Assembly: GCF_000332075.2 (NCBI RefSeq)
Contig: NZ_ALVU02000001.1
Coordinates: forward strand, 3,484,324-3,548,323
DNA length: 64,000 nucleotides
Reading direction: 5' to 3'
DNA from: Synechocystis sp. PCC 7509
Lineage (GTDB): Bacteria > Cyanobacteriota > Cyanobacteriia > Cyanobacteriales > Chroococcidiopsidaceae
In this document: piece after piece, positions 2,021 through 33,223 of the stretch
Layout: the number at the start of each line of letters is the position of its first letter
Numbering within the stretch: position 1 is the stretch's first letter
Translations under genes and position numbers: made by a program
The notes under the pieces: generated by a model
Database searches by the model: none
The model's input: only the letters and a program-made list of their open reading frames with translations
Told to the model about the DNA's origin: nothing

Positions 2021-4711
2021 ATGTCTCAAGACAAAGAAGCAGAAATTAAACATCAATTTTTAGAAGAAGCTGAAGAACATATCGCCAAAATTGAATCGGC
2101 GCTGTTAGAACTTGCAAGCACTAAAAGCGATCGCCTTTTTGACGCTATATTAAGAGCCGCCCATTCTCTCAAAGGCGGTGCAGCCATGATGGGCTTTCAG
2201 ACATTAAGCAGTTTGGCTCATCGTCTGGAAGATTTTTTTAAAATCTTAAAAATTAAGCCAAGTTTAATCGATCCAGAAGTAGAAAAGTTATTGCTAACTG
2301 GGGTGGATTGTCTAAGTCAAGTCGTCAAATTAAATTTTCGCGGCGACTTAAAGGACGAGCAATGGTTAGAATCTGCTAATCCAGCTTTTGAGCAACTACA
2401 CCAAATCCTCGGTGAATCTCAAACAATTGCCGACACTATAGCCATTGTGTCCGAAGATGGGCAAGACATGGCGGGGTTGATTTTTGAAACGGAAGTAGAA
2501 GAATATCTACAACGCTTAGAATCGCTACTAATTGCCGATCTGCCAGCGATGGAATTGCAAGCAGAAGTAATCAATATGGCGCAGGAATTGGGTAGTTTGG
2601 GGGAAATGTTACAGATAGAAGCTTTTACGAGCTTGTGTCAGTCTGTAGTGGAGCAACTAGAAGCAAAGAGCGATCGCACTCTAGAAATTGCTCAACAAGC
2701 CTTGCAAGCTTGGCGTACAACCCAAGCAACTATCTTAGTTGGCGAACTTCATACCCTGCCAAAAAGTCTAATTACCGACCAATACAGGCAAGAAGACTCC
2801 CAATTGCTCGATCTAATTATGCTCGCAGACTTTGAGCTTCCTGTTGAAAAGGAGGAATTAGCACCATCTGTAGGGCTAGAGGAAGGGGCTGTAAGCCTTA
2901 GCTTATCAGGATTAGCCGCAACTAACGACGAGCCGGAAGCCTACTTAGACAGCACGGTACGAGTACCAACTAAATTACTCGAGCGCCTCAATGATTGGTT
3001 TGGCGAACTAACTATTGCTCGTAATAGCGTCAATGTATATACAGAAAGACTCCGGGATTTGAGTAGCTTACTTAAGTTGCGAGTCCGGGCAATGCAAAAC
3101 TTGGATAGTAACTTAGCAATTAGCAGCGCCAATATTTTTGAGCCCAGCGATTACTTTTTGCCTCAAACTATGCTACAAGACCTTGTGCGCCTGCAAGAAG
3201 TTACTAATGATATTGATTTGACTTTGGCAGAAACAGATCAAAGTGTTGGCGAACTAAACCGAGTTGCCAAGCAGTTACAAACTAGCTTAACTCAAGTCAG
3301 GATGCGACCTTTTGCTGACCTAGTGGCTAGATTTCCTCGCTTTATTCGCGAACTTGCTTCAGAATATGGCAAAAATGTTGAGTTCAAAGTTAGCGGCGAA
3401 CAAACTCTCATTGATCGCACTATTTTGGAAGCATTAAATAATCCTTTGATGCACCTGCTACGCAATGCTTTCGATCATGGGATCGAAAAGCCAGAAATTC
3501 GCTCTGGTTTGGGTAAGCAAGCCGTAGGGACAATTGAAATTAAAGCGGCTTATCTTGGCAACCAAACGATAATTACCGTCAAAGATGATGGTGGGGGCAT
3601 AAATTTAGAGCTGCTTCGCGCTCATGCTCAACAATTAGGCATCGAGCCGCCTAGCGAGGAAGAACAACTTTTAAGTTTAATTTTCGAGCCAGGATTTAGC
3701 ACCGCAAGTCAAGTAACGGCTTTGTCTGGTAGAGGGGTAGGTATGGATATTGTGCGCACCAACTTAAGACAAATTCGCGGCGATATCAAAGTTGATACCC
3801 AGTTAGGGGTGGGGACAACCTTTACTCTTAGCGTTCCCTTGACATTATCGGTTGCCAAAGTAATTTTAGTTGAAACTAATAGTATTTTGTTAGCGTTTCC
3901 TGTGGAGTCTATTAGAGAAATTCTATTACCCAATCCCAACCAATTTTGTGAAATTGCTGGCAAGGAAGCGATTAGTTGGGAAGGATTGATTGCGCCTTTA
4001 ATTCGTTTAGATCAATGGTTAAAACCACGTCAACAGTTTGAACAAATGGCATTTTACACCGAACCCACAGTATTAACAGTCGAAGATAATAACGAATGGG
4101 TAGGATTACTTGTAAATCGTTCTTTAGGCGAACAGGAAGTTGTAATTCGTCAGGTAGAACCGGGAATAGCTATGCCTCCAGGTTTTAGTAGCTGTGCGAT
4201 TTTAGGCGATGGGAGAGTTGCGCCGCTAGTAAATGTTCCGGCTTTACTTACATGGATTGCTAAAAGTAATCGCGCGATCGCTAATTTGCCTCCAAAAGTT
4301 ACTGACTTTGAATTAGAAAACAAAAAAGATACCATTTTGGTAGTAGATGATTCTATTAATGTCCGACGTTTTTTATCGTTAACTTTAGAAAAAGCTGGCT
4401 ATCGCGTAGAACAAGCCCAAGATGGACAAGAAGCTTTGGAAAAACTCTTAACTGCTTTGCCCATTAAAGCTGTAATTTGTGATGTTGATATGCCTCGCTT
4501 GGATGGTTACGGCTTTTTAGGGCGGGTTAAATCCAACTCTAAATTTAAACAATTACCGATCGCCATGCTGACTTCTCGTAGCGGGACTAAAGATCGCCAG
4601 TTAGCCATGCAACTAGGAGCAACAGCTTATTTCTCTAAGCCCTACAACGAACATGAATTGCTTCAAGCTATCAAGCAAATGGTAGATAATACTTCTAAGC
4701 AGAAAGCTTAA
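2021..4711 (+). CDS. CheA-type hybrid histidine kinase with receiver domain
   Basis: An 896-residue chemotaxis-type kinase. The domains in order are: an N-terminal Hpt domain with the phospho-acceptor His48 in AAHSLKGGA; a dimerisation region near 315-430; a GHKL ATPase with the N box HLLRNAFDHGIE and the glycine boxes DDGGGINLE and GRGVGMDIV; a CheW-like domain; and a C-terminal receiver domain with DD in LVVDDSINV and the phospho-acceptor Asp in CDVDMPRLDG. It would phosphorylate its own receiver domain or a separate CheY-like protein. In cyanobacteria such CheA/PilL hybrids usually control type IV pilus motility or phototaxis; no pil or che partner is visible here, so the pathway is inferred. 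It overlaps the convergent NACHT gene by four bases. Confidence 0.92.
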   Translation: MSQDKEAEIKHQFLEEAEEHIAKIESALLELASTKSDRLFDAILRAAHSLKGGAAMMGFQTLSSLAHRLEDFFKILKIKPSLIDPEVEKLLLTGVDCLSQVVKLNFRGDLKDEQWLESANPAFEQLHQILGESQTIADTIAIVSEDGQDMAGLIFETEVEEYLQRLESLLIADLPAMELQAEVINMAQELGSLGEMLQIEAFTSLCQSVVEQLEAKSDRTLEIAQQALQAWRTTQATILVGELHTLPKSLITDQYRQEDSQLLDLIMLADFELPVEKEELAPSVGLEEGAVSLSLSGLAATNDEPEAYLDSTVRVPTKLLERLNDWFGELTIARNSVNVYTERLRDLSSLLKLRVRAMQNLDSNLAISSANIFEPSDYFLPQTMLQDLVRLQEVTNDIDLTLAETDQSVGELNRVAKQLQTSLTQVRMRPFADLVARFPRFIRELASEYGKNVEFKVSGEQTLIDRTILEALNNPLMHLLRNAFDHGIEKPEIRSGLGKQAVGTIEIKAAYLGNQTIITVKDDGGGINLELLRAHAQQLGIEPPSEEEQLLSLIFEPGFSTASQVTALSGRGVGMDIVRTNLRQIRGDIKVDTQLGVGTTFTLSVPLTLSVAKVILVETNSILLAFPVESIREILLPNPNQFCEIAGKEAISWEGLIAPLIRLDQWLKPRQQFEQMAFYTEPTVLTVEDNNEWVGLLVNRSLGEQEVVIRQVEPGIAMPPGFSSCAILGDGRVAPLVNVPALLTWIAKSNRAIANLPPKVTDFELENKKDTILVVDDSINVRRFLSLTLEKAGYRVEQAQDGQEALEKLLTALPIKAVICDVDMPRLDGYGFLGRVKSNSKFKQLPIAMLTSRSGTKDRQLAMQLGATAYFSKPYNEHELLQAIKQMVDNTSKQKA

Positions 4712-7005
4712 TTTTCTGGCGTAGTTATTAATACTAAAGTATCTTCAATTGTTTGCCGGACTGACCGACTCATATAACTATTAGTACCAAGACAACTAAC
4801 TAACAATTTGTTGGCTTCATAATACTGTTTTAGCCTTTCCCATTCTTGATGATTGAAGTCCCAGTTGTAACCAAAATCCCGGTGAGAAACAATAGTCGCT
4901 CTTAATTCTTCTGTCCAGTCATGATTATTTACTACCCACCATTGTTTAAACTTTTCGTTGGTATCCGTAAATGGTGTTTGCTTTTCTAGCTGAACTATAG
5001 CTTGTTTTAGTTCTCGATTGACGTTGTGCGATCGCTGCTTAGTTCTATCTAAGACATTTTTAAACACTCGCACGGGCTGACTTGCAAAGTCAAGAATATA
5101 GTTAAGAGTCAAAGCTCGATCTAAAGCCAAATCCAGCGCCAAGTCGGGGCAAAGTTCTCGTGTAAACTTATTATCTATCAGTCTTGCTAAGTCGAGCGTA
5201 CCACCAACAGAGTTTTGTTTTCTGGCAATATCCAAATCTAAATAAAAAGCTCTAACTTTGTTTAGTTTATGCTTGGAAGATACTGCATGAGATTTGTTGT
5301 CTATCCACTTAATAAAATTTTGTAGCTTTTTATTATCCGCAACTAACGCATCAATTTGATCTTTGAGCATCAAAAGCAAATAATCAGCATTGCGGAGCAT
5401 TCCGACGGTTAGTAAAAAAACTTCTCGCCAACGTTTTTCTGTGATGTTGCTAACTAAATCTCGTAAAGTTGTTTCTAAAACTTGCGGATTGGAACTTGAA
5501 ACAATTTCTTTAGCAGCAAAATACTCTTGAAAACTCAAGTGAGAAAAAGAGTAAATTCCTCGCGCTCTTTCTACCAATAGTCCGTGTTGAGCTTCAATTG
5601 ATTTGACTACAGCTTCGCTATCTAGTTGTAACACCTCAGTTTCCGTACTGACATTAGGTAAATTGCAAATATAATCGGCTATATGTTGCTCTAATTCATT
5701 TTGTTTAAAAAAATAGTCGCCTCGCTTGAAGGTTAATAAAGCGATTTGACTGAGTAGGTCTTCTTTATGCTGTAAGGATAATTTTTTGTATATTTGCGAT
5801 CGCTCAATATTTCTTTTTGCATCCCATTTGCGTAATAGTAAATGCAACCCTTCTTGATAAAGCTCAGAGCTATTAGCAGGGAAGTCGGCTATTTCTTCAA
5901 ACATCAAACATAGCATAGTTAACAATAGCGGATTAGTTGCTATTTCTTGAATCGGCGGGTTTTTATGGAGCTTCCCTAAAAACTTACGGGTTTTACTTGG
6001 CTCTTTTTGGGCAAACCAATTTTGGGCAAATTTAGCTACTTGCTCCTGGTCAAAGTCGGCAATTTCTACTTCAGTAAATTGTTCTAAAGTGTATTCGTGG
6101 GTGGCAATGCGGCAAGTAATTACAAAGTAGTTATTATGAAATTTTTCGCTAAAAATATGCACTTCTTGCAGGACGCGATAGCAATCTATTTCTCTAACTT
6201 CATCAAGTCCATCTAATAATATTAGCCCCTTGCCTTGGCTAAGTATTTCTTCTGCTGCTTCAACTTTGTTGACCCCATAACCAATAAATTGCTCCGTCAC
6301 ATAATCTAGCAAATGCAAACAATTTTCATCTTCAGCAAAGTCTTTAAGAGTAATGAAAATTGGCACTTTATCCGCTTCTAATTTGCCAGAATTACACTGC
6401 ACTGCTAAATATTTTAAAAAAGTTGTTTTTCCCGCTCCTGGTTTGCCCAAAACAAACAGTTTAGGATGATTTTTAAGAGCTTCTAATCCCGATACTCGGC
6501 TTTGAATTATTTGTCCTAATCCAGGACGATCAAAATCATCAGCAACGCATACTTGAAGTAGGTCTGCAACGCCCAATCGCCGTCTTCCAATAATTTTTTC
6601 CAAGACATTGACGTTGGTATAAATATCATCTAACTCAACAGGTTGGGACATATCTAGCACGCGCATTATGCCACACCTTTGCTGAATACTCGCGTATCCT
6701 TTTGCTTTTACTTCTGCTACTAAATCATTAATATTATCGTCATTAATGCTGGTTTCTGCTAATTTAGTTGTGTGATTTTCACTCAAATCAGCGACTTCTT
6801 GCCAAGATAACTGTAGCTTTTGACAAATATGATGGAAATTCTCTCTTCCTACAGGTTTTCCTGCAAAAAACTTTTGCAAAGTAGCGCGAGACATTTCTAA
6901 ATCGGCGGCTAAGTCAACTTTGGTAGGAAAGGCTAGAACAGCTTGTTTTGCAAGGTTAATTCCTTGGCTTGACGCTTTTAGCGATCGCTTCGATCTTACT
7001 ATCAT
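4708..7005 (-). CDS. NACHT-family STAND NTPase with N-terminal helix-turn-helix
   Basis: A 765-residue protein. Residues about 20-75 look like a Cro/XRE-type helix-turn-helix (LEMSRATLQKFFAGKPVG). A NACHT NTPase follows, with Walker A GKPGAGKTTF (187-196) and Walker B LILLDGLDEV (261-270), then helical regions and SFSHLSFQEYFAA, typical of the NACHT-associated winged helix. The C-terminal 250 residues are helix-rich without recognised repeats and may be the sensor. Some bacterial NACHT proteins are known antiphage sensors; that role is inferred for this one. The gene stands alone, convergent with the CheA-like gene, and a long gene-free region lies upstream. Confidence 0.88.
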   Translation of the reverse strand: MIVRSKRSLKASSQGINLAKQAVLAFPTKVDLAADLEMSRATLQKFFAGKPVGRENFHHICQKLQLSWQEVADLSENHTTKLAETSINDDNINDLVAEVKAKGYASIQQRCGIMRVLDMSQPVELDDIYTNVNVLEKIIGRRRLGVADLLQVCVADDFDRPGLGQIIQSRVSGLEALKNHPKLFVLGKPGAGKTTFLKYLAVQCNSGKLEADKVPIFITLKDFAEDENCLHLLDYVTEQFIGYGVNKVEAAEEILSQGKGLILLDGLDEVREIDCYRVLQEVHIFSEKFHNNYFVITCRIATHEYTLEQFTEVEIADFDQEQVAKFAQNWFAQKEPSKTRKFLGKLHKNPPIQEIATNPLLLTMLCLMFEEIADFPANSSELYQEGLHLLLRKWDAKRNIERSQIYKKLSLQHKEDLLSQIALLTFKRGDYFFKQNELEQHIADYICNLPNVSTETEVLQLDSEAVVKSIEAQHGLLVERARGIYSFSHLSFQEYFAAKEIVSSSNPQVLETTLRDLVSNITEKRWREVFLLTVGMLRNADYLLLMLKDQIDALVADNKKLQNFIKWIDNKSHAVSSKHKLNKVRAFYLDLDIARKQNSVGGTLDLARLIDNKFTRELCPDLALDLALDRALTLNYILDFASQPVRVFKNVLDRTKQRSHNVNRELKQAIVQLEKQTPFTDTNEKFKQWWVVNNHDWTEELRATIVSHRDFGYNWDFNHQEWERLKQYYEANKLLVSCLGTNSYMSRSVRQTIEDTLVLITTPEN

Positions 7006-7826: not shown

Positions 7827-9512
7827 ATGTTGCAAGGAATTTTTCAAATTGCTTTGACGCTATTACTCATAATAGCGATCGCCTATCCCCTTGGCAGATA
7901 CATAGCTCGTTTGTTTTTAGGGCAAAAAACCCTCCTCGACCCGTTAATGAATCCGATAGAGAGCATTCTCTACAAAATAGGAGGCGTACAGGCAAAAGAT
8001 GATATGACGGGCTGGCAGTACGCCAGAGCAATACTATATAGCAACCTAGTCATGGGAATAATAGTATTTTTGCTCCTTAGCACCCAAGGATTATTACCTT
8101 TAAACCCTACAAGCTTAACTGCTCCAGTTTGGCACTTATCTTTACACACAACAATTTCTTTTTTAACTAATACCGACCAGCAGCACTACTCCGGTGAAAC
8201 AACATTAAGTTATCTCAGTCAAGTATTAGGGCTGGGATTTTTAATGTTTACCTCAGCAGCGACGGGTTTAGCGGTAGGTATTGCTTTTATTAAAGGCTTA
8301 ACGGGACGACCATTAGGCAACTTTTACGTTGATGTAACTATTTCCATTACCCGAATACTGCTACCGCTATCTTTTGTGGGGGCAATATTGCTAGTAATTT
8401 TAGGCGTACCAGAAACCCTAGCCGCCCCGGAAACAGTGACGACTTTAGAAGGAGCAACTCAAACTATTGCTAGAGGCCCCGTAGCTCATTTTGAAGCGAT
8501 TAAACAATTAGGGGAAAATGGCGGCGGTTTTTTTGGCATCAACTCCGCCCATCCCTTTGAAAATCCTAATCCTGCCACAAACTTGCTCGAAACTCTGGGA
8601 ATGGTATGTATTCCCGCCGCCTTGATTTTTACTTACGGCATAATTGCCGGAAATCTTAAACAAGCTTGGCTGTTATTTGGGATGGTATTTTTACTTTTTA
8701 CGTTTCTAACTTTCCTTACTGCTGTAGGAGAATTTCAAGGAAACCCCTTAGTAAATACTCTATTAGATACACCGCAGCCAAACTATGAAGGTAAAGAAGT
8801 TAGGTTTGGCTGGGCGCAAACTGCATTATGGGCAGTTACCACCACCGGGACTATGTGCGGTGCAGTCAATGGAATGCACGATTCTTTGATGCCCAATGGA
8901 GGCTTTTCAACCTTACTCAATATGTTCTTACAAATTGTTTGGGGCGGTCAGGGAACGGGAACAGCCTACTTATTTATTTACTTAATTTTGTCGGTATTTG
9001 TCACCGGGTTAATGGTGGGACGTACCCCAGAATTTTTGGGGCGCAAAGTAGAACAACGAGAAATTGTGCTGGCTAGTGTAGTGCTACTGGTTCACCCGAT
9101 TGTAGTTTTAATTCCTAGTGCGATTACCCTTGGCTTTGCCGATTCTTTATCAGGAATTAGCAACCCAGGATTTCACGGGCTGGCGCAAGTAGTATACGAA
9201 TATACCTCCGCCGCCGCTAATAACGGTTCGGGTTTTGAGGGATTGGGAGACGCGACTATTTGGTGGAATCTCAGCACGATTGTGAGTTTGCTAGGGGGTC
9301 GCTACGTGCCGATTATCGCTATTTTGCTATTAGCAGATAGTATGAGGCACAAACAACCCGTACCCGAAACTTCCGGGACATTGAGAACTGATACGCTTTT
9401 ATTTACCACAGTTACAGCCGGAATAATTTTAGTTTTGGGCGTACTGACATTTTTCCCAGTTTTAGCTTTAGGGCCAATTGCGGAAGCTTTTAGCCTTGCA
9501 AGTCAACAGTAG
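7827..9512 (+). CDS. kdpA: Potassium-transporting ATPase, K+-binding subunit KdpA
   Basis: A 561-residue, strongly hydrophobic protein of normal KdpA length. It is the channel-like subunit of the KdpFABC high-affinity K+ pump in the inner membrane, which selects K+ when the external level is very low. Family segments include [15 protein letters not shown], a filter-type loop, and NNGSGFEGL. About ten membrane helices can be seen. It is the first gene of a compact kdpA-kdpB-kdpF-kdpC operon and lies 38 bases before kdpB. Neither kdpD nor kdpE is in the window, so the sensor must be elsewhere or absent. Confidence 0.97.
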
Positions 9513-25218: not shown

Positions 25219-25380
25219 TTAGTTTGCTATCTCATTCAAGCAGCAGTAGAACTAATCAAACCTTCTATAAATTCAAGTTATCTAGACGAGCAGATCGCTA
25301 AAAAGTTTACGAGAGTGCATGAAGCAGTAGTATTTGCATATTTAGGCAGCATTATAGATGATGATATTGGTGTCAATTAA
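25219..25380 (+). pseudogene. Stop-free frame without start, possible gene remnant
   Basis: Fifty-three codons are open between TAG at 25216 and TAA at 25378, with protein-like composition (AAVELIKPS, LDEQIAKKF, VHEAVVFAYLG). There is no ATG, GTG or good ribosome site at its left end. It may be the tail of a lost small gene, or chance; it also runs antisense to the PIN remnant. I do not recognise the family. Confidence 0.25.
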
Positions 25381-25389
25381 AACTTTCAT
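25342..25389 (-). pseudogene. 5' remnant of a PIN-domain toxin gene
   Basis: The ATG overlaps the stop of the upstream antitoxin-like gene as ATGA, a common toxin-antitoxin layout. The frame reads MKVLIDTNIIIYNAA and then stops. MKVLIDTNIII is the classical first strand of VapC/PIN nucleases with the first catalytic Asp. The rest of the domain, about 120 residues, was not found in any frame towards 25211, so the toxin has been lost by deletion. Confidence 0.65.
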
Positions 25390-25682
25390 TGCAAATATCT
25401 TTCTATCATCCTCTCCTCCAACATGGTTTGAACTTCAGTATCCGTAGGAGCGAGCTTATCTGTTTTCAAAAAACCACGCATTTGTTGAATTAAAGCTTCC
25501 CATTCTGCACAGGAATCTTGAATAGGACTACTAGGATTAGAAGTAAATGGTTGTTTAAGCGGTGTTTGATTCACTGAACTATTTAGCTCATTTTGCAGCG
25601 ATTCAATAATGAGATTTACTAAAGTAAGGCGATCGCTCACAGATAACTTAAAAGCTTGTTCTTTGGTTTCTTGTAGAGACAT
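25386..25682 (-). CDS. Probable orphan antitoxin of a lost PIN toxin
   Basis: A 98-residue protein. The N-terminus, MSLQETKEQAFKLSVSDRL and then a LVNLIIESL helix, resembles the short antitoxins that sit before PIN toxins in cyanobacteria. The middle is a Ser/Pro/Thr-rich linker and the C-terminal 40 residues are helical and charged. The stop TGA overlaps the ATG of the PIN remnant. With no intact toxin it may now be non-functional or act only as a DNA-binding protein. The family name is uncertain. Confidence 0.65.
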   Translation of the reverse strand: MSLQETKEQAFKLSVSDRLTLVNLIIESLQNELNSSVNQTPLKQPFTSNPSSPIQDSCAEWEALIQQMRGFLKTDKLAPTDTEVQTMLEERMIERYLQ

Positions 25683-25779
25683 AGCGTGTTTTTAACTCTA
25701 GTATCTAGCTTATTGCAACTAATTGGGGGATTGATAAGAGCGCGTTTTATACTTTGCTATTGATTAGCGCGATCGCAAT

Positions 25780-26421
25780 TCACCACAATAAAGTTGCTAT
25801 ACCTGCAAGTATAGGACGACGACCTACACAACGATGCCCTAATAGTACATTTTTAACTAACTTATCCGCCGTTGGACAAGTAGATAATTTTGGTGGTTTA
25901 CTGAGTTTTTCTGCTAATTTTCCTTGCAAATCTGAAGGCGCACGGGGCGGAAATACTAAGCTTAGAGAAACATTGTCTTTTAAGGTGCGCGATTGAGATT
26001 CCGCCCAAGTCCATAAAGCGCCCTGAGTCGCGCTAAAATGCCCTAAATTCGGTAAGCCAATTCGCCCATTTTGACCTAAAAATACACCAATTCTGCCTTC
26101 TCCTGCCGCTTGCATTTGTGGTACAACGCTTTCAATTAGATGGATAGGAGATATCACATTTACTTGCATCATTGTCTCTAAGTCATCAAAAACTGCGGCA
26201 CAGTGAAACAATGCTGATGGTGTCTCTAATTCTGGTAGTTGTAAAAGTCGCAAATCGCAATGATGCCATACTAATTCTTTGTTTTGCGATCGCGCCCACA
26301 ATATTAAATCTTCTGGAGGCGATCGCGTTAACGCCACTACGCGCCAATCTAGCCGTAATAAACTCAATACTACATTACGACCCCAAAACCCTGTAGCACC
26401 TGTCACCCAAGCGGTTTTCAT
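25780..26421 (-). CDS. SDR-like protein with altered catalytic motif
   Basis: A 213-residue Rossmann-fold protein with the nucleotide motif TGATGFWG (7-14) and the NVISP segment of short-chain dehydrogenases. Where the family has YxxxK it has FSATQ (Phe129 and Gln133), so both the Tyr and the Lys used in catalysis are replaced. It may bind NAD(P) without normal redox activity, or act as a partner subunit. It is the last gene of the eight-gene minus-strand cluster and overlaps the hydrolase stop by four bases (ATGA). Confidence 0.8.
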   Translation of the reverse strand: MKTAWVTGATGFWGRNVVLSLLRLDWRVVALTRSPPEDLILWARSQNKELVWHHCDLRLLQLPELETPSALFHCAAVFDDLETMMQVNVISPIHLIESVVPQMQAAGEGRIGVFLGQNGRIGLPNLGHFSATQGALWTWAESQSRTLKDNVSLSLVFPPRAPSDLQGKLAEKLSKPPKLSTCPTADKLVKNVLLGHRCVGRRPILAGIATLLW

Positions 26422-27179
26422 GGTAGGAGAAAGTTATTAATTTCTTGGTATACGCGATCGCGTTCTACATCTAATAAAATAATATGGTCTGATTTTTCTA
26501 ACCAGCAAAGTTTTTTCTCTTTAGAGCCGATTTGCTGATAAATTATTTTTGCACCATTAGGATCGACTACTGTATCTTTTAACGACTGGATAATTAATGT
26601 TGGTACTTCAATTTGCGGTAACAAAGGTTTAATTGCGTTAATCAATTCCAATGCGCTTTTAACTGTTGGTAAATTAAAGGTTTTAAAAAATGCCGCTTCT
26701 TCAGCCGCTTTTCGCATAACTTTATCGCTAATTGGCAATCTTAATCGAGGTACATCATTAATTAATCTACCTACCGAAGCTAGATAAGTTTCGGGTTTTA
26801 GTAAGTAATACCATTCGTGCTTGATTGCTAAAAATGGGCTAAGTAAAATCAAATTTTCCACAGGATTTGTAGCAGCTAAATATAACGCTAGTGGGCAACC
26901 TGTAGAAAATCCAACTACTGAAACGTTGGCATATTTTAAACTTAGCTTTTGATAGGTTTCTTCTATGTGTTCGTACCATTCTTTCCACTTAGAAGCTGGC
27001 ATTTTAGGCATAAGTTCCGCATGACCTGGATAATTTATACCTTGAACAGCTAAACCGCGTTTATGCAAGTATTCTCCTAATAGCTGCATCTCATATACAC
27101 CGCCACCTAAGCCATGTAGAAGTAAGCAAGCGCGATCGCCTGTGGATTCTAATAAAAACGGTTGATTGCTTAATTTCAT
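26418..27179 (-). CDS. Alpha/beta hydrolase, lysophospholipase/esterase-like
   Basis: A 253-residue serine hydrolase. HGLGGG near residue 18 forms the oxyanion region, GFSTG holds the nucleophilic Ser, and SLKDTVVDP plus SDHIILLD supply the Asp and His. It resembles monoacylglycerol lipase/carboxylesterase enzymes. In the cluster it may remove an acyl group from, or edit, a lipid intermediate; this is inferred from context. It overlaps the methyltransferase stop and the SDR start by four bases each. Confidence 0.85.
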   Translation of the reverse strand: MKLSNQPFLLESTGDRACLLLHGLGGGVYEMQLLGEYLHKRGLAVQGINYPGHAELMPKMPASKWKEWYEHIEETYQKLSLKYANVSVVGFSTGCPLALYLAATNPVENLILLSPFLAIKHEWYYLLKPETYLASVGRLINDVPRLRLPISDKVMRKAAEEAAFFKTFNLPTVKSALELINAIKPLLPQIEVPTLIIQSLKDTVVDPNGAKIIYQQIGSKEKKLCWLEKSDHIILLDVERDRVYQEINNFLLP

Positions 27180-27931
27180 CTTTTTACCATTGTTCCTACA
27201 GCAAAATAATCGTTACGTTGCAGGGTTTCTAGTTCCCAACCATAGGGTTTTGCCCAATCAATTAATTGTTGTGCTGGACGCAATACTAATTTCCAAGGTT
27301 TTTGATTTAGATCGACTAAAGTTTCTTGCAATAGTTTCAAATCTGGATGATTTTCTTCAATAGTAAAAACCCATCTTGCGCCGGGTTGAGTAATAGCTGA
27401 ACCATTATTTAAAACTTTTTTAATCTGCTCGTCTTCTGTCAAAATGTCAAAGAATCCAGAAGATACTAAAATATCGGCTTTTTGGCTGGCAAAAGCAGAT
27501 AAATTAAAAGCATCGTTATGTTTAAAAATAATATCGCTGCGTCCTTGGTTAGTAGCTTTTGCTTTTCCTTGAGTGACGGCTTCATCGTTGTAATCGCCAG
27601 CAATAATAGTTGCGCGATCGAAGGGTAATAAAAATAAATAAGAACCGACACCCGCCGCTAAATCGAACACTTGAGGATGGTTGTAATTAGAGATTGCATC
27701 ATTAAGTTGAGTTACTAGCATTTGACGGCGCGATCGCACTCCATCCCAAACTTTATTTGATAGATATATCCGGTCAATTAATACCCCTAATGGTGTGATT
27801 CCCTGGGGTTTATTTTCATAGACGTACTCCAACATTACACCAGAATCAAAGCCCGTTCTCCAGCCTAAACTAATGCCTTTGCTGAGTTTACCAACAGTTT
27901 TGAGTAAAAAACGTAAAATTTGATATTTCAT
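27176..27931 (-). CDS. Class I SAM-dependent methyltransferase
   Basis: A 251-residue methyltransferase. SAM motif I is FDLAAGVGSYL and the acidic strand-2 residue is in IIAGDYNDE. I chose the ATG at 27931 (MKYQILRFLLKTVG), 16 bases after the aminotransferase stop; an ATG at 27985 would overlap that gene by 38 bases. Similar methyltransferases occur next to or fused with alpha/beta hydrolases beside CDP-alcohol transferase genes in other bacteria, as I recall. The methyl acceptor is unknown; an amine or lipid head group is possible. Confidence 0.82.
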   Translation of the reverse strand: MKYQILRFLLKTVGKLSKGISLGWRTGFDSGVMLEYVYENKPQGITPLGVLIDRIYLSNKVWDGVRSRRQMLVTQLNDAISNYNHPQVFDLAAGVGSYLFLLPFDRATIIAGDYNDEAVTQGKAKATNQGRSDIIFKHNDAFNLSAFASQKADILVSSGFFDILTEDEQIKKVLNNGSAITQPGARWVFTIEENHPDLKLLQETLVDLNQKPWKLVLRPAQQLIDWAKPYGWELETLQRNDYFAVGTMVKR

Positions 27932-27947
27932 TGCTTTTAGGGGTGAT

Positions 27948-29000
27948 TTAACGGTATTCGAGCTTACATTTCCATAGCCAATCAACGGTTTTGGATAAAC
28001 CTTTCATTGAGTTAAAAATATGCGGCGATAGGCGGACATAATCACCTCTTTGGGCGGTAATAATGCGTTTTTTATAGCCATTTTTAACAATTAATTCTGC
28101 TTGTCCCAATCCTGGATCGAAGCAAAGAAGACCAGACCATCTTTCAGGACAAGATACAACTTTCCAACCCATTTCTAACAAGCGTTCGTGCAGGTAATCA
28201 CGGCGTTGTTTTACACCTTGAGTTATATTTTCCCAACCATAGTTTTGAAAGTATTTTAAATTAGTTTCAAAGCGGGCGATCGCTTGCGGAGAAGACCAGC
28301 TTAATTCCCAACCCCGCGCGGTTTTACTCATTTCTGACTGCACCAAAGGCGGCTGATTTAATCCCAGCCAAGTAGGAAAAGGTGCAGATAATCGGCTTAA
28401 AACTCTGGGACTAATAACTAATAAAGCGAGTCCCAAACCCGAAGCTAACCATTTTTGCGTCCCTGCACACCAAAAATCAATTTCAGGACACCAACTAGGT
28501 TTAACTCCCGCCGATTGAATCGCATCTACACAAGTCCAAATCTCTTTAGCGCTTGCTTGTTTTACTACCTGTTGCCAAGGTTGTTCTATCCCAGTTGTAA
28601 AGTCAACGGTGGAAATGCTAACCATTTTTACAGATTCATCCCAAGGTTGCGCCCAATCTTGCACGGCTTGCGCTTCAACTCCAAAGCGGTCTAAACTCTG
28701 CCAAGGTAAAACATTAGCGGGAAAATCATTAGCTGGATACATCACGGTGTCGCCGTTTTGCCAATTTAGACTGTGGGCGGCGATCGTTAATGCCATGCTA
28801 GTAGAAGGTACAAAGGCAACTTGTTCGCTGTGACACCCTAACCATAAAGCTACACTTTCTCGTAGCTTATCAACTCGTTTAACCCAGTTTGGTAACAGAA
28901 TATTGCCCATAAGTTCGGGGGCGATTAGGCTGTGCAAGTAGCTTTGTAAAGTTAAAGGTGCAAGTCCCGCCCAGTTTAGATAAGTAATTCCGGGAATCAT
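27948..29000 (-). CDS. Class V PLP-dependent aminotransferase
   Basis: A 350-residue PLP enzyme of the aminotransferase class V / cysteine desulfurase-like fold. The PLP lysine is in CAGTQKWLASG and the ring-binding Asp in CVDAIQSAGV. There is no obvious desulfurase active-site Cys loop. It starts MIPGITYLNWAGLAPL, like small class V enzymes acting on free amino compounds. The stop of the CDP-alcohol transferase gene and this start share one base. In this cluster it might make or remove the amino group of a lipid head group (inference). Confidence 0.85.
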   Translation of the reverse strand: MIPGITYLNWAGLAPLTLQSYLHSLIAPELMGNILLPNWVKRVDKLRESVALWLGCHSEQVAFVPSTSMALTIAAHSLNWQNGDTVMYPANDFPANVLPWQSLDRFGVEAQAVQDWAQPWDESVKMVSISTVDFTTGIEQPWQQVVKQASAKEIWTCVDAIQSAGVKPSWCPEIDFWCAGTQKWLASGLGLALLVISPRVLSRLSAPFPTWLGLNQPPLVQSEMSKTARGWELSWSSPQAIARFETNLKYFQNYGWENITQGVKQRRDYLHERLLEMGWKVVSCPERWSGLLCFDPGLGQAELIVKNGYKKRIITAQRGDYVRLSPHIFNSMKGLSKTVDWLWKCKLEYR

Positions 29001-29593
29001 TAGGCTGTTTGGGTGTTAATGTCACGGATAGATCGAAATATCCGTAAGCCAATAGTTAAACCGCAACCGATACACATTCCGGGTATAACGTATTGCCATA
29101 CAGGGAAGCCAAACGCCGCCACAATACAGCTAATACCAATAATTGCCAGCCTGTCAGTTTGTCCGCAAGGGCCTACCGATTGGGTTTTACTTCCCGCCGT
29201 TAAACCAAGTAAACCAAAGGTTTGCACCCAGCTTGTCAGGATAATTAGGGCAATAATCCATGTAAGTTGACTGTGAGGAAATAAGCCCAAAATAATCAGT
29301 AAATCGGTGATTTCTCCCGGTAAACGGTTGAGATAAGCCCCTAATGGAGATGTTTTGTTAAATTCTTCTGCAACTAAGCCATCTAAGGTACTAAGTAACA
29401 TTCGTAATGCGATCGCAATTATCGCCCCAATCCACCAACCTTTATACAAACAGTAAGCTGTAGCTAAACCGGGTATTAGTGTCGAACACGATAACCAATT
29501 GGGTGATAATTGATTGATTCCAGGAATTTTCCTGAGTAAAGCCCGTAACGTATATTTAGCTTGATACAAACCCAAATCAATTTTAGGAGTCAT
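29000..29593 (-). CDS. CDP-alcohol phosphatidyltransferase-like protein, degenerate motif
   Basis: A 197-residue membrane protein with about five or six helices, of the YnjF-like branch of CDP-alcohol phosphatidyltransferases. The family motif DxxDGxxAR-x8-GxxxDxxxD is only partly kept: position D1 is Ser68, D2 is Asp71, the glycine is Gly72, the Arg is Glu76, G2 is Gly85, D3 is Asn89 and D4 is Gly93. Three of the four metal-binding Asp residues are missing, so ordinary phosphatidyl transfer is doubtful. It overlaps the acyltransferase gene by four bases. Confidence 0.8.
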   Translation of the reverse strand: MTPKIDLGLYQAKYTLRALLRKIPGINQLSPNWLSCSTLIPGLATAYCLYKGWWIGAIIAIALRMLLSTLDGLVAEEFNKTSPLGAYLNRLPGEITDLLIILGLFPHSQLTWIIALIILTSWVQTFGLLGLTAGSKTQSVGPCGQTDRLAIIGISCIVAAFGFPVWQYVIPGMCIGCGLTIGLRIFRSIRDINTQTA

Positions 29594-30252
29594 AAAAATA
29601 ATTCTTGTTTAAGTTGAGTAATTAACTTGTCTAAGTCATTACCTGTATAAGGTTCTCCAAAGGTAACTTCTAAATGCTGAAATGGTCGCCACCACCGCAC
29701 GTCTACTGACCACGCAGATTTAGTTCCAGCCAAATGTACGGGTAAAATTGTCCAACCTTCTTTTAGTAATATTTTTAGTAATCCGCGTTGAAGTTGGCAA
29801 CTTTTACGGCTACCACTGGGATAAAACAAAATCCAGCCAGAGGTTGCAGCTTTTAAGCGATTTCGCCATTGTTTTAATTCCATGACGCTAAGGCGATCAA
29901 AAGCTACAGCTTGACATAATAATGATGCGGCTAACGCCCGATTAAGTTGACAAAAAAAGTAGTCTGCGGCGGCTAATACAACAACTTGACATCGGATTTT
30001 GGCAGGTAAGGCGGCAAGTAAAGTAATAGTATCTAGGTGTGATTGATGGTTTGCTACAATGGCAATGCGATCGCCTGTAGGAATTTGCCCTTTTACCGTT
30101 AGCCGATATTGCAATCTTAATAGTGTTACTGCAAGCCAACTACCACAAAGCCGCAAAGTGTCCCATGTTAAATCTGGTACGCGCGGGTAACTCCCTAATC
30201 TTTTAGTTAAAGGATCTCCCAAATCCGGCGCTGGTGCATACTCGAATCTCAT
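29590..30252 (-). CDS. PlsC-like acyltransferase
   Basis: A 220-residue glycerol-phosphate acyltransferase-type protein. Motif I is NHQSHLD (68-74) with catalytic His69 and Asp74. Motif III, normally FPEGTRS, is YPSGSRK (144-150), with Ser in place of the substrate-binding Glu. HLAGTKSAW covers motif IV. It would transfer an acyl chain to a lyso-lipid or another alcohol. It overlaps the Rieske gene stop and the CDP-alcohol gene start by four bases each, supporting co-translation. Confidence 0.85.
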   Translation of the reverse strand: MRFEYAPAPDLGDPLTKRLGSYPRVPDLTWDTLRLCGSWLAVTLLRLQYRLTVKGQIPTGDRIAIVANHQSHLDTITLLAALPAKIRCQVVVLAAADYFFCQLNRALAASLLCQAVAFDRLSVMELKQWRNRLKAATSGWILFYPSGSRKSCQLQRGLLKILLKEGWTILPVHLAGTKSAWSVDVRWWRPFQHLEVTFGEPYTGNDLDKLITQLKQELFL

Positions 30253-31262
30253 ACTGGTTTACCTTGATAAACAAAGGGTTCAGAAGTTAAAGGCTGTTTT
30301 CCATCAGTCTGATTTAAAATAACTTTGCGGACGGCGTGAGAAACTGGATTAGTTTCGCGGCTTAAGTCTTGACTATGTAAGTTATACGCCCGTTGTTCTT
30401 CTTGTACCGCGCGGATATCTTCAGCAAACACTTGGCGAAATGTACCTTTATCTAAAATTGGGTGCAGCAATTTTAAAATCCAAGGCATCCCGCGTATATG
30501 GCGAAAGTAAAATGTTGAATAAACCCATGTTCTTTGTGGTGCAATAGGGACATAAACTACAAATAAATAAAATGCCCCATCCTCCGACCATAAATGAAAG
30601 TAAGGATACTCATACATGACATGGACGCGATTTTTGCCGGGGTGAGAAATCAGCGCCGCGAGTAGCCTGGGGGTATCAACTTCATAGATGGCGTTTACAG
30701 TCCGTAAGTCACTTTTTAAAGACAATAGTTTAGGATTTGCCCAAGGTTGGGCGCTTTGATGCAAGTCTGCATGAAATAAATCGGTGGCATTTTCGGTAAT
30801 ATAGCTAAAATGACAGCCAACTTCTCCTTGCATCGGAATCGGATGATAATTATTGCTGTGAACTGGGGGAATTTTTGGTAATGGTACAGAATCGGCTAAG
30901 TTTGCATCACCTAAAAATACCCACAACCAGCCGCCATACTCTTTAACAGGGTAAGACTTAAGACAAAATTGCTTGTGTATATCCATACCCGGAATATCGG
31001 TACATTGACCGCTAGGGGCAAATTTCCAGCCGTGATAACTACAAACAAGTTTGTTCCCAACTCGGCGACCAAATTTACTTAAACGTACTCGTTTATGCGG
31101 ACAAGCATCTTCAAAGACGCTGTAGCTATTATTATTTTTGACAACAACTAATTCTACCGTTCCCACTTTCGCCGCTTTAACTCCACTACGCGGAAAGCTT
31201 TTAAGATGGGCAACTGTCCACCAATAATCGAGATTAACACTACACTGGCGTACATCTTCCAT
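30249..31262 (-). CDS. Rieske non-heme iron oxygenase
   Basis: A 337-residue oxygenase. The Rieske 2Fe-2S ligands are Cys54, His56 (CPH), Cys74 and His77 (CSYHGW). The mononuclear iron site is in ENATDLFHADLH with His164 and His168. It resembles pheophorbide a oxygenase/choline monooxygenase-like enzymes. I start it at 31262, where ATG shares its last base with the cdsA-like stop (TAATG); an in-frame ATG at 31322 would overlap by 60 bases. It probably hydroxylates or demethylates a product of the cluster; the substrate is unknown. Confidence 0.88.
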   Translation of the reverse strand: MEDVRQCSVNLDYWWTVAHLKSFPRSGVKAAKVGTVELVVVKNNNSYSVFEDACPHKRVRLSKFGRRVGNKLVCSYHGWKFAPSGQCTDIPGMDIHKQFCLKSYPVKEYGGWLWVFLGDANLADSVPLPKIPPVHSNNYHPIPMQGEVGCHFSYITENATDLFHADLHQSAQPWANPKLLSLKSDLRTVNAIYEVDTPRLLAALISHPGKNRVHVMYEYPYFHLWSEDGAFYLFVVYVPIAPQRTWVYSTFYFRHIRGMPWILKLLHPILDKGTFRQVFAEDIRAVQEEQRAYNLHSQDLSRETNPVSHAVRKVILNQTDGKQPLTSEPFVYQGKPV

Positions 31263-32221
31263 TAGTAGCCAAAGCCTCCATGAAAAAAGCGGACTGTGTG
31301 AAAAAATACTGGCGCAACCCACAGCAAACTATCGATTCTGTCTAAAATTCCGCCATGTCCGGGTAAAAGTGCGCCAAAATCTTTAATTCCCAAATCGCGT
31401 TTAAAGGCACTCATTACCAAGTCGCCAATTTGACCGCCGATACCTACTATTAAACCAATTATTCCTACTAACCACCACTGAAAATGAGGAAAAGCAATTT
31501 GCCAGTTGAGAAATGCGATCGCAATACTTGACAATAAAGCTAAAAGCGAACCTTCTACAGTCTTTTTAGGCGATATTTCCGTCCAAGTAGTTTTACCGAA
31601 TAATTTACCCCACAAAAAAGCTAAAGCATCGTTAAATTGAGTCGCCAGTACCATAAACAACACATACCCTAACCCATACCAAGACTGACTTAAAAAGCTA
31701 ATATGCGCTAGAAACCAACCAAAATAAATTAGTCCAATCGCTGATAAGGAAATATGTTGAATTGCCCCTTTAGATTGGTTAGTAAGTATAGGTAAAGTTG
31801 TAATTCCAGCTATTCCCCAAATTGGCAACGCCATAAATAGCCCGTACTGATTAAAAGCCGCACACAAACCCAATCCGACAATTAAAATATCGACAATAAT
31901 ACAATAAGCCCGATGTTCGTAAAGTCCTGTACTACGGGCAAATTCTTTAAAACCATAGATAGAAACTAAAGTAATTGCGATCGCCCATGCACCCGAACCC
32001 AGCCACAAAGGTATAAAAATTACCGGTAACAAAATCGCCCAAGTTAAGAAAGGCTTCTTTGCTACTTCTAAGGGTTTTAGCCAAATAAAAGCGCCTAATA
32101 ACGAATAAACAATTGCCGCCAAACCAGAATAAAAAGCTAAAGGAATAAAGTTGTTAGTAATGTTATTACTTATTAATTCAATCAAATTGAATGATTGAGC
32201 GATCGCATTTATACTGTTCAT
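31262..32221 (-). CDS. Phosphatidate cytidylyltransferase-like protein (second CdsA type)
   Basis: A 319-residue integral membrane protein with about eight helices. The full CDP-diglyceride synthetase signature is present: SAFKRDLGIKDFGALLPGHG followed by GILDRIDS. It should make CDP-diacylglycerol or a similar CDP-alcohol from CTP and a phosphatidic acid. It is the first gene of the eight-gene cluster and supplies the activated lipid that a CDP-alcohol transferase downstream would use. Whether the genome has a separate housekeeping cdsA cannot be seen here. Confidence 0.9.
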   Translation of the reverse strand: MNSINAIAQSFNLIELISNNITNNFIPLAFYSGLAAIVYSLLGAFIWLKPLEVAKKPFLTWAILLPVIFIPLWLGSGAWAIAITLVSIYGFKEFARSTGLYEHRAYCIIVDILIVGLGLCAAFNQYGLFMALPIWGIAGITTLPILTNQSKGAIQHISLSAIGLIYFGWFLAHISFLSQSWYGLGYVLFMVLATQFNDALAFLWGKLFGKTTWTEISPKKTVEGSLLALLSSIAIAFLNWQIAFPHFQWWLVGIIGLIVGIGGQIGDLVMSAFKRDLGIKDFGALLPGHGGILDRIDSLLWVAPVFFHTVRFFHGGFGY

Positions 32222-32527: not shown

Positions 32528-32875
32528 ATGCCTAAAATCACTTTAGAAGTCAGCGAAGAACTGGCAGAACAATTGGCAACTATGGGCGACAAACTCCCTG
32601 AACTCCTACGCCAGAGTATACAAAACCCAGTAGTGCCAGCCTCTATTTATCGCTACATCCTCAACTTTCTGACAAGTTCACCTACACCTGCACAAATTGC
32701 GGCTTTTAAACCAACTACAGAAATGAGCGATCGCTTACAAATTTTACTCAACCGTAGTCAATTAGGCAAACTCACCACTTCAGAACTTGCTGAACTAGAT
32801 GAATACGAGCATATAGAACATTTAATAATTATGCTCAAATCTGGCAATTTGCCTCATCTGACAAGTAATCCGTGA
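32528..32875 (+). CDS. Hypothetical protein paired with HNH gene
   Basis: A 115-residue soluble protein I do not recognise by name. It is mostly helical; the first half (ITLEVSEELAEQLATMGDKL) resembles small antitoxin-like or accessory proteins, and the last half has RSQLGKLTTSELAELDEYEH. Its stop overlaps the GTG start of the HNH gene (GTGA), so the pair is co-translated. Similar pairs with HNH nucleases are common in cyanobacteria, from memory. Confidence 0.75.
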   Translation: MPKITLEVSEELAEQLATMGDKLPELLRQSIQNPVVPASIYRYILNFLTSSPTPAQIAAFKPTTEMSDRLQILLNRSQLGKLTTSELAELDEYEHIEHLIIMLKSGNLPHLTSNP

Positions 32876-33223
32876 GTGTTACTTACATTCCTAGTGCGTT
32901 GCGCCGCTTGGTAGAAAAACGTGCCAATTACAGATGTGAGTATTGCCAACTTTTGGCAGAGGTCGCCTTTTTCTCTCATGAAATAGACCACGTAATAGCT
33001 GAAAAACATGGCGGTGCAACTGATGCCAACAACTTAGCTTTTACTTGTTGGCGTTGCAATCGCTACAAAGGAAGCGATCTCGGCTCCTTCGATCCTCAAA
33101 CAGGTGCTTTTAGTTTGCTATTTAATCCTTGGCTTCACCCCAGAAGGACGCACCACTATAAAATTGCTTCAAATTAACAGTGAAGAACGACGTGAAGAAA
33201 GGCAACGCTTGTCTGACTCATAA
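32872..33223 (+). pseudogene. HNH endonuclease gene with internal deletion and frameshift
   Basis: The first 85 or so residues carry an intact HNH core: CEYCQ, then EIDHVIAEKHGG, NNLAFTCWRCNRYKG and FDPQTG. At about 33129 the frame changes. The annotated frame ends at 33177 with an unrelated tail (LHPRRTHHYKIASN), while the +1 frame continues GFTPEGRTTIKLLQINSEER to TAA at 33221, which is the expected C-terminus. About 15-20 residues between FNP and GFTP are also missing compared with relatives, so a deletion not divisible by three is the likely cause. The truncated 101-residue product may still fold. Confidence 0.7.

What the first reader, a model, noticed from the sequence alone, without database searches (positions are those of the whole stretch)
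25780..32221. Eight-gene overlapping operon that may build an unusual lipid
Seen: eight minus-strand genes (cdsA-like, Rieske oxygenase, PlsC-like, CDP-alcohol transferase-like, class V aminotransferase, methyltransferase, alpha/beta hydrolase, SDR-like) with overlaps of one or four bases or a 16-base gap. Known: CdsA, PlsC and CDP-alcohol transferases act in phospholipid synthesis; related small clusters exist in Pseudomonas (around PA2536-PA2541, from memory). Inference: the amino, methyl and oxygenase steps suggest a modified head group or a lipid-like small molecule. I know of no described product for this combination.
Basis: partly seen in the sequence, partly recalled or inferred. Interest (0 to 1): 0.8.

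Follow-up and report, generated by a model that had tools for sequence, protein, structure and literature searches.

The report
Variant lipid operon shared with Vampirovibrio
Eight tightly packed bacterial genes look like an extended version of a known but chemically unexplained phospholipid-type gene cluster; a small group of cyanobacteria shares this version with the algae-killing bacterium Vampirovibrio, and it may make a membrane lipid that has not been described.

Summary
Eight minus-strand genes (25780-32221) overlap by 1 or 4 bases or lie 16 bases apart. All eight recur in order in 3 other genomes of the genus (Aliterella group); seven (no alpha/beta hydrolase) recur in order in Vampirovibrio chlorellavorus and, over two contigs, in another family of its class. 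dN/dS is 0.065-0.156.

The core (CDP-alcohol transferase, CdsA-like, PlsC-like, PF12147 methyltransferase) is of E. coli ynbABC type. P. aeruginosa arc1 (PA2541-PA2536), a T6SS-resistance locus, seems to be of this type; that link is partly recalled. Among clusters read here, the Rieske, class V PLP and SDR-like genes occur only in this clade.

Best reading: a dedicated second CDP-diacylglycerol branch making a modified non-PG phospholipid. Its product is unknown. Cautions: the transferase lacks the canonical aspartate motif (17 of 17 aligned relatives deviate), the SDR lacks Tyr/Lys in 8 of 8, and the Rieske gene is a remnant in one Vampirovibrio genome. New variant of a known kind.

The parts
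31262..32221 (-). CdsA-like CTP:phosphatidate cytidylyltransferase (YnbB type), 319 aa
   Evidence: PF01148 E=4.7e-56; C-terminal half aligned to solved CdsA 4q2g, E=3.9e-18; 34% identity over 242 aa to E. coli YnbB; one of two PF01148 places in the genome
30249..31262 (-). Rieske non-heme iron oxygenase, 337 aa
   Evidence: PF00355 E=5.1e-18; only near-full-length NCBIfam match is SdmA 4beta-methylsterol monooxygenase, 138 bits against cut-off 600; C54/H56/C74/H77 and D161/H164/H168/D282 invariant in 5 of 5 (their roles as ligands are recalled); H-x3-H is one residue shorter than in DdmC
29590..30252 (-). PlsC-like acyltransferase, 220 aa, with PSGSR in place of PEGTR
   Evidence: PF01553 E=2.4e-11; HX4D kept; PSGSR in 6 of 6 extended-cluster sequences against PEG(T/S)R in 5 of 5 core-cluster sequences aligned
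29000..29593 (-). YnbA-type CDP-alcohol phosphotransferase, 197 aa, non-canonical motif
   Evidence: PF01066 E=3.8e-9; D1 replaced by N/S and D3 by N in 17 of 17 aligned, D4 by G in the 7 extended-cluster sequences; nearest full-length solved match of the profile is PI-phosphate synthase 6h53
27948..29000 (-). class V PLP enzyme, 350 aa
   Evidence: PF00266 E=3e-23; D159, Q162, K183 invariant in 7 of 7; nearest solved: cysteine desulfurases, C-S lyases
27176..27931 (-). PF12147 SAM methyltransferase (C-terminal half of YnbC type), 251 aa
   Evidence: PF12147 E=1.3e-43; 32% identity over 266 columns to the YnbC C-terminal half
26418..27179 (-). alpha/beta hydrolase, 253 aa, seen only in Aliterella-group clusters
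   Evidence: PF12146 E=8.1e-22; no match in the Vampirovibrio and G398 loci; weak similarity to the YnbC N-terminal half, pairwise E=0.004 over 62 aa
25780..26421 (-). SDR-fold protein without the catalytic Tyr/Lys, 213 aa
   Evidence: PF00106 E=5.2e-11; GxxGxxG kept; F129 and Q133 at the Tyr and Lys positions and LGQNGR at the Ser region invariant in 8 of 8 (aligned to solved SDRs)

Best explanation
One operon encoding a dedicated second phospholipid branch of ynb/arc1 type. Proposed route: the PlsC-like enzyme supplies or remodels an acylated phosphate lipid; the CdsA-like enzyme activates it as CDP-diacylglycerol; the YnbA-type transferase adds a polar acceptor (a polyol phosphate, by its distant similarity to PI-phosphate synthases, or an amino alcohol); the PF12147 methyltransferase methylates the product. 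The class V PLP enzyme and the Rieske oxygenase make or tailor the acceptor or the lipid; the SDR-fold protein is a non-oxidoreductase partner; the hydrolase is an Aliterella-group addition that trims or recycles. By analogy with arc1 the role would be envelope integrity, for example tolerance of phospholipase attack. Shown: gene set, order, conservation, purifying selection, family and motif residues. Inferred: co-transcription, lipid product, order of steps, role.
For: The core families match E. coli ynbABC and clusters on Shinella, Citrobacter, Burkholderia and Pseudanabaena plasmids. The four core genes stand together in 3 other cyanobacterial genomes and in 4 genomes of family f31, with a fifth cut by its contig end and a sixth with only methyltransferase fragments. 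CdsA signature and PlsC HX4D are kept. The host has another CdsA and a PgsA-like protein with all four Asp. PG is stated to be the sole phospholipid in cyanobacteria (PMC5897459, one passage), so a second CdsA/CDP-OH pair is unexpected. E. coli YnbB overproduction raises the CDP-DAG-derived glycolipid MPIase (PMC6362211, passages). P. aeruginosa lacking arc1A is more sensitive to lipase effectors (PMC12663445, passages). An Aas-like acyltransferase/AMP-ligase gene follows the SDR-like gene in G398.
Against: No product, transcript or mutant is known. The transferase lacks the canonical aspartates and may not do the textbook reaction. The PlsC-like motif III is altered. The PAP2/dual-specificity phosphatase of the E. 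coli, Shinella, Citrobacter and Burkholderia clusters is missing. PA2537-PA2541 sequences were not compared. The E. coli ynbB knockout had no significant change in MPIase, and YnbB does not complement cdsA. In the first arc1 study no single inactivated toxin, two phospholipases included, explained the arc1 defect (PMC8926400, passages), so its lipase link is not consistent between studies.
Confidence: 0.58

Rival explanations
1. A lipid repair or defence module in which no new lipid accumulates: the acyltransferase, hydrolase and activated lipid re-acylate or clear damaged (lyso)phospholipids, with the YnbA-type and SDR-fold proteins as non-catalytic binding partners.
For: arc1 and arc1A phenotypes in T6SS and lipase defence; degenerate motifs in the CDP-OH protein and SDR; Aas-like gene next to the G398 cluster.
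Against: Methyltransferase, PLP enzyme and Rieske oxygenase keep their motif residues, which a pure repair module would not need.
Confidence: 0.2
2. A small lipid-like secondary metabolite or isoprenoid/sterol-type lipid, not a phospholipid: Rieske plus SDR act as in SdmA/SdmB C-4 demethylation.
For: The Rieske protein's only near-full-length NCBIfam match is SdmA; SdmAB works in a cyanobacterium, Calothrix (PMC10202945, passages).
Against: 138 bits against a cut-off of 600; the SDR lacks Tyr/Lys, and no SdmB model is among the 25 of 48 matches shown for it (whether the library holds one was not checked); no cyclase gene in the cluster; one Vampirovibrio genome keeps the operon with the Rieske gene a remnant.
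Confidence: 0.1
3. Independent functions packed in one directon: a phospholipid core plus unrelated passengers.
For: Hydrolase, Rieske and GNAT genes come and go.
Against: Order kept between lineages whose RpoB is only 63-68% identical; PLP, methyltransferase and SDR-like genes are present in every cluster not cut by a contig end.
Confidence: 0.1

Closest known systems
ynbABCD of Escherichia coli K-12 and the same type on Shinella, Citrobacter and Burkholderia plasmids
   Same: YnbA-type CDP-OH protein, YnbB-type CdsA and PF12147 methyltransferase domain; the three plasmid clusters also have a PlsC-like gene, E. coli has none in the operon
   Different: Window adds Rieske, class V PLP and SDR-like genes; its hydrolase is a separate gene with only weak similarity; no PAP2/dual-specificity phosphatase
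arc1A-F (PA2541-PA2536) of Pseudomonas aeruginosa
   Same: Six-gene locus with a probable phosphatidate cytidylyltransferase at PA2536; the kinds of the other genes are recalled, not compared
Four-gene ynbA-ynbB-plsC-MT clusters of Pseudanabaena ABRG5-3 and three other cyanobacterial genomes
   Same: Same core in the same phylum
   Different: Outside the window-type clade (support 100 in the concatenated tree); none of the accessory genes
SdmA/SdmB sterol C-4 demethylase pair
   Same: Rieske plus SDR pairing; near-full-length Rieske match
   Different: Far below the SdmA cut-off; SDR without Tyr/Lys

Membership tests
ynb/arc1-type lipid cluster | YnbA-type CDP-OH protein together with YnbB-type CdsA and PF12147 methyltransferase, usually a PlsC-like gene | tested here: met
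ynb/arc1-type lipid cluster | hydrolase fused to methyltransferase (YnbC) | tested here: not met
   separate genes, weak hydrolase similarity; the other cyanobacterial and f31 clusters read also have a short, unfused methyltransferase ORF
ynb/arc1-type lipid cluster | PAP2/dual-specificity phosphatase (YnbD) | tested here: not met
   none among the eight genes
ynb/arc1-type lipid cluster | protection against T6SS or phospholipase attack | not testable with these tools
   reported for arc1 only (PMC8926400, PMC12663445, passages)
canonical CDP-alcohol phosphotransferase | DxxDGxxAR...GxxxDxxxD motif (recalled) | tested here: not met
   S-xx-D-G-xx-A-E ... G-xxx-N-xxx-G in the window; the host's PgsA-like protein keeps all four Asp
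CDP-diacylglycerol synthase | C-terminal KR...KD...PGHGG..DR.D signature | tested here: met
classical SDR oxidoreductase | catalytic Ser and YxxxK | tested here: not met
   Phe and Gln at the Tyr and Lys positions in 8 of 8
class V PLP fold | PLP lysine and Asp | tested here: met
   K183, D159 invariant in 7 of 7; D159 aligned to SufS, K183 within one column of its Lys
cysteine desulfurase | catalytic Cys in the C-terminal loop (motif recalled) | tested here: inconclusive
   window has RLSPHIFN in that region; the printed alignments stop before it
SdmA 4beta-methylsterol monooxygenase | score over the curated cut-off | tested here: not met
   138 against 600 bits

The most novel reading that the evidence does not exclude
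The operon makes a previously undescribed nitrogen-containing, methylated and oxygenated phospholipid, a second phospholipid class in a cyanobacterium, through a CDP-alcohol phosphotransferase with a new N-D-N type active site; the pathway passed between a photosynthetic cyanobacterial lineage and the predatory Vampirovibrio lineage, where it may protect the envelope against phospholipases.
Probability: 0.3. Interest if true: 0.78.

Novelty: new variant of a known kind. Interest (0 to 1): 0.52.

Why it matters
The ynb/arc1 module is found in several phyla and has a defence phenotype in one species, yet I found no paper that names its product. A compact variant with three extra enzyme-type genes, in organisms described as having PG as their only phospholipid, gives a clean background in which a product would stand out in lipidomics. 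The unusual transferase motif raises a testable question about CDP-alcohol phosphotransferase chemistry.

Tried and rejected
Structure prediction of the Rieske and PLP proteins gave low-confidence models (mean pLDDT 53.5 and 55.3, five-sequence alignments); no fold search was run on them. Gene neighbourhoods of three plasmid relatives of the Rieske protein and of the two plasmid relatives of the PLP enzyme gave no functional clue. Empty-site test: in five sister-genus genomes where the best DUF3370 and response-regulator matches lie on one contig (G561, G538, G573, G614, G585) they are more than 140 kb apart, so no empty site was read. Cluster GC (40.4%) is near window GC (42.0%), while the V. 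chlorellavorus cluster has 56.1%: composition gives no sign of recent transfer. The order of Aliterella, Vampirovibrio and G398 in the trees is unresolved (64 for Aliterella+Vampirovibrio in the concatenation, 79 in the CdsA-like tree; against it 95 in the methyltransferase and 68 in the CDP-OH tree), so the direction of any transfer is open. The SDR beside the Moraxella ynb-type cluster is not detectably related to the window SDR. Short pentatricopeptide-repeat matches of the YnbA profile were discarded as repeat artefacts.

Rows dropped before counting: four f32 hits at 28-30% identity (one, G018, re-read with about 8 kb on each side: no cluster); G428, G430, G444, G460 and G366, G554, G608, G617 (E 1.9e-46 to 6.5e-21); of these only G428 was re-read (no cluster).

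Literature: no paper holds four of five terms for the gene set, none holds three of five for the core set; of 126 papers with a ynb term the 30 listed are mostly unrelated. The V. chlorellavorus genome paper (PMC4451040) and an Aliterella-related genome paper (PMC12587747) do not contain 'phospholipid' or 'Rieske' in the main text. Only open PubMed Central papers were searched.
Full report
WHAT IS THERE. The window lies on contig C1 of a 4.9-Mb genome. Its genus includes Aliterella atlantica CENA595: genus members G605, G623, G638 and G657 have the contig positions of the named loci L010 (A. atlantica), L007 (Chlorogloea CCALA 695), L008 (Chroococcus MAG) and L012 (Aliterella MAG), so these are counted once. 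Eight minus-strand genes run from 32221 to 25780 with 1- or 4-base overlaps and one 16-base gap. All eight have Pfam assignments over the gathering score.

CONSERVATION. All eight genes in the same order: the window plus L007, L008 and L010. L012 holds cdsA, Rieske (read in two pieces in different frames), plsC, cdpOH and part of the PLP gene up to its contig end. V. chlorellavorus (L009 = G408) has seven in the same order at 52-67% identity, without the hydrolase. A second genome of its genus, G418, keeps six; between cdsA and plsC it has only a short frame made of N-terminal, middle and C-terminal scraps of the Rieske protein. G398, of another family of that class, has cdsA-Rieske-plsC at the end of one contig and plsC-cdpOH-PLP-MT-SDR at the end of another, at 46-65% identity to the window; that these are one cluster is inferred. 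I call this class Vampirovibrionia from recall.

COUNTS. PLP enzyme with E <= 1e-60: 5 of 388 genomes of the order, all in the window's genus, where 1 of 6 genomes (74% complete) had no hit and 13 of 13 other members of the family had none; 4 of 289 genomes of the class of G015; 1 of 386, the window's own, in the phylum sample. dN/dS between window and L010 is 0.065-0.156 for the eight genes.

CORE IDENTITY. tblastn with window and E. coli proteins gives cdsA = YnbB type (34% over 242 aa), CDP-OH = YnbA type (33% over 110 aa), MT = C-terminal half of YnbC (32%). The four-gene order ynbA-ynbB-plsC-MT occurs in G193, G237, G286 and on a Pseudanabaena plasmid; in four f31 genomes (G015, G148, G303, G382) the order is ynbA-MT-ynbB-plsC, a fifth (G254) is cut by its contig end before ynbA, and a sixth (G359) shows MT fragments only. 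PF12147 was found in 10 of 386 phylum genomes, the window's own included, and in 1 of 14 control genomes, E. coli. Annotated clusters from Shinella, Citrobacter and Burkholderia add a fused hydrolase-methyltransferase and a PAP2/dual-specificity phosphatase; a Moraxella one has a patatin-like and an unrelated SDR gene. In the concatenated tree of CdsA-like, CDP-OH and MT proteins the window-type clusters form one clade (support 100; 100, 98 and 100 in the single-gene trees), apart from the other clusters of the phylum; the branching inside it is unresolved. Patchiness suggests transfer between the Aliterella lineage and Vampirovibrionia, but RpoB identity (67.8% window-V. chlorellavorus, 63.1% window-G398, 65.2% between these two) shows that the cluster proteins are not clearly more alike than RpoB, so an old shared cluster lost in many lineages is not excluded.

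ACTIVE SITES. CDP-OH protein: canonical D1 is S in 4 and N in 13 of 17 aligned sequences, D2 is D in 17, D3 is N in 17, D4 is G in the 7 extended-cluster sequences and D in the other 10, and a further Asp (D97 in the window) is invariant; the nearest full-length solved match of the profile is PI-phosphate synthase. The host's PgsA-like protein keeps all four Asp. That these Asp bind metal is recalled knowledge of the family. PlsC-like: HX4D kept; PEGTR is PSGSR in 6 of 6 extended against PEG(T/S)R in 5 of 5 core sequences. Rieske: candidate cluster and iron ligands invariant in 5 of 5, with H-x3-H spacing. PLP enzyme: K183 and D159 invariant in 7 of 7, nearest solved relatives cysteine desulfurases and C-S lyases. 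SDR: GxxGxxG kept, Tyr and Lys replaced by Phe and Gln in 8 of 8.

MECHANISM. PF01066 has three places in the host genome (a PgsA-like protein, a third protein, and the cluster gene) and PF01148 two, so the cluster is a second set. [quoted passage not shown] The simplest reading is a dedicated branch from phosphatidate through CDP-diacylglycerol to an unknown phosphatidyl-X, methylated and possibly aminated or oxygenated. Support for a lipid role comes from relatives: YnbB overproduction raises MPIase, although the ynbB knockout hardly changes it and YnbB does not replace CdsA (PMC6362211, passages); arc1 is needed against T6SS attack (PMC8926400, passages) and arc1A against lipase effectors (PMC12663445, passages), although in the first study no single inactivated toxin explained the arc1 defect. 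That PA2541 is a YnbA-type protein is recalled and was not tested. Against a simple head-group pathway: the CDP-OH and SDR proteins have non-canonical sites, the PlsC-like motif is altered, the phosphatase of the ynb type is missing, and Rieske and hydrolase are not universal, so the indispensable set is likely CdsA-like, PlsC-like, CDP-OH, PLP, MT and SDR-like.

VERDICT. Observation confirmed; interpretation partly supported; new variant of a known but unexplained kind. No description of this combination was found in the searches named in Tried and rejected.

Noticed in passing
L007:8374-8928; L012 about 4505-5181: A GNAT acetyltransferase gene (PF13302, E=4e-21, tested in L007) lies between the CDP-OH and PLP genes; the L012 stretch is 98.8% identical over 677 bases.
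   Followed up: partly
L058 about 8990-9150 (G418): Rieske gene reduced to a short remnant frame between cdsA and plsC in a Vampirovibrio-genus genome that keeps six other cluster genes.
   Followed up: partly
L028:7121-8206 (G303), L030:7761-8849 (G015): In f31 genomes the YnbA-type protein carries a C-terminal flavodoxin-like domain (Pfam tested on L028; L030 by alignment).
   Followed up: no
L059:2706-4859 (G398): Aas-like acyltransferase/AMP-ligase gene 15 bases after the SDR-like gene on the same strand.
   Followed up: partly
L039 (Kosakonia cowanii plasmid): A methyltransferase gene matched by the window methyltransferase follows ACP, ketosynthase, MaoC-type and FabG genes, hinting at acyl-chain chemistry for this family.
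   Followed up: no
window 25330-25690, minus strand: Looks like an antitoxin-type ORF followed by a very short frame resembling the start of a PIN-type toxin; read by eye only.
   Followed up: no
window 32528-33177, plus strand: Two-gene unit (115 aa unknown plus HNH nuclease) upstream of the cluster; homologues lie on the other side of the cluster in L010 (13072-13562), so it appears to move.
   Followed up: no
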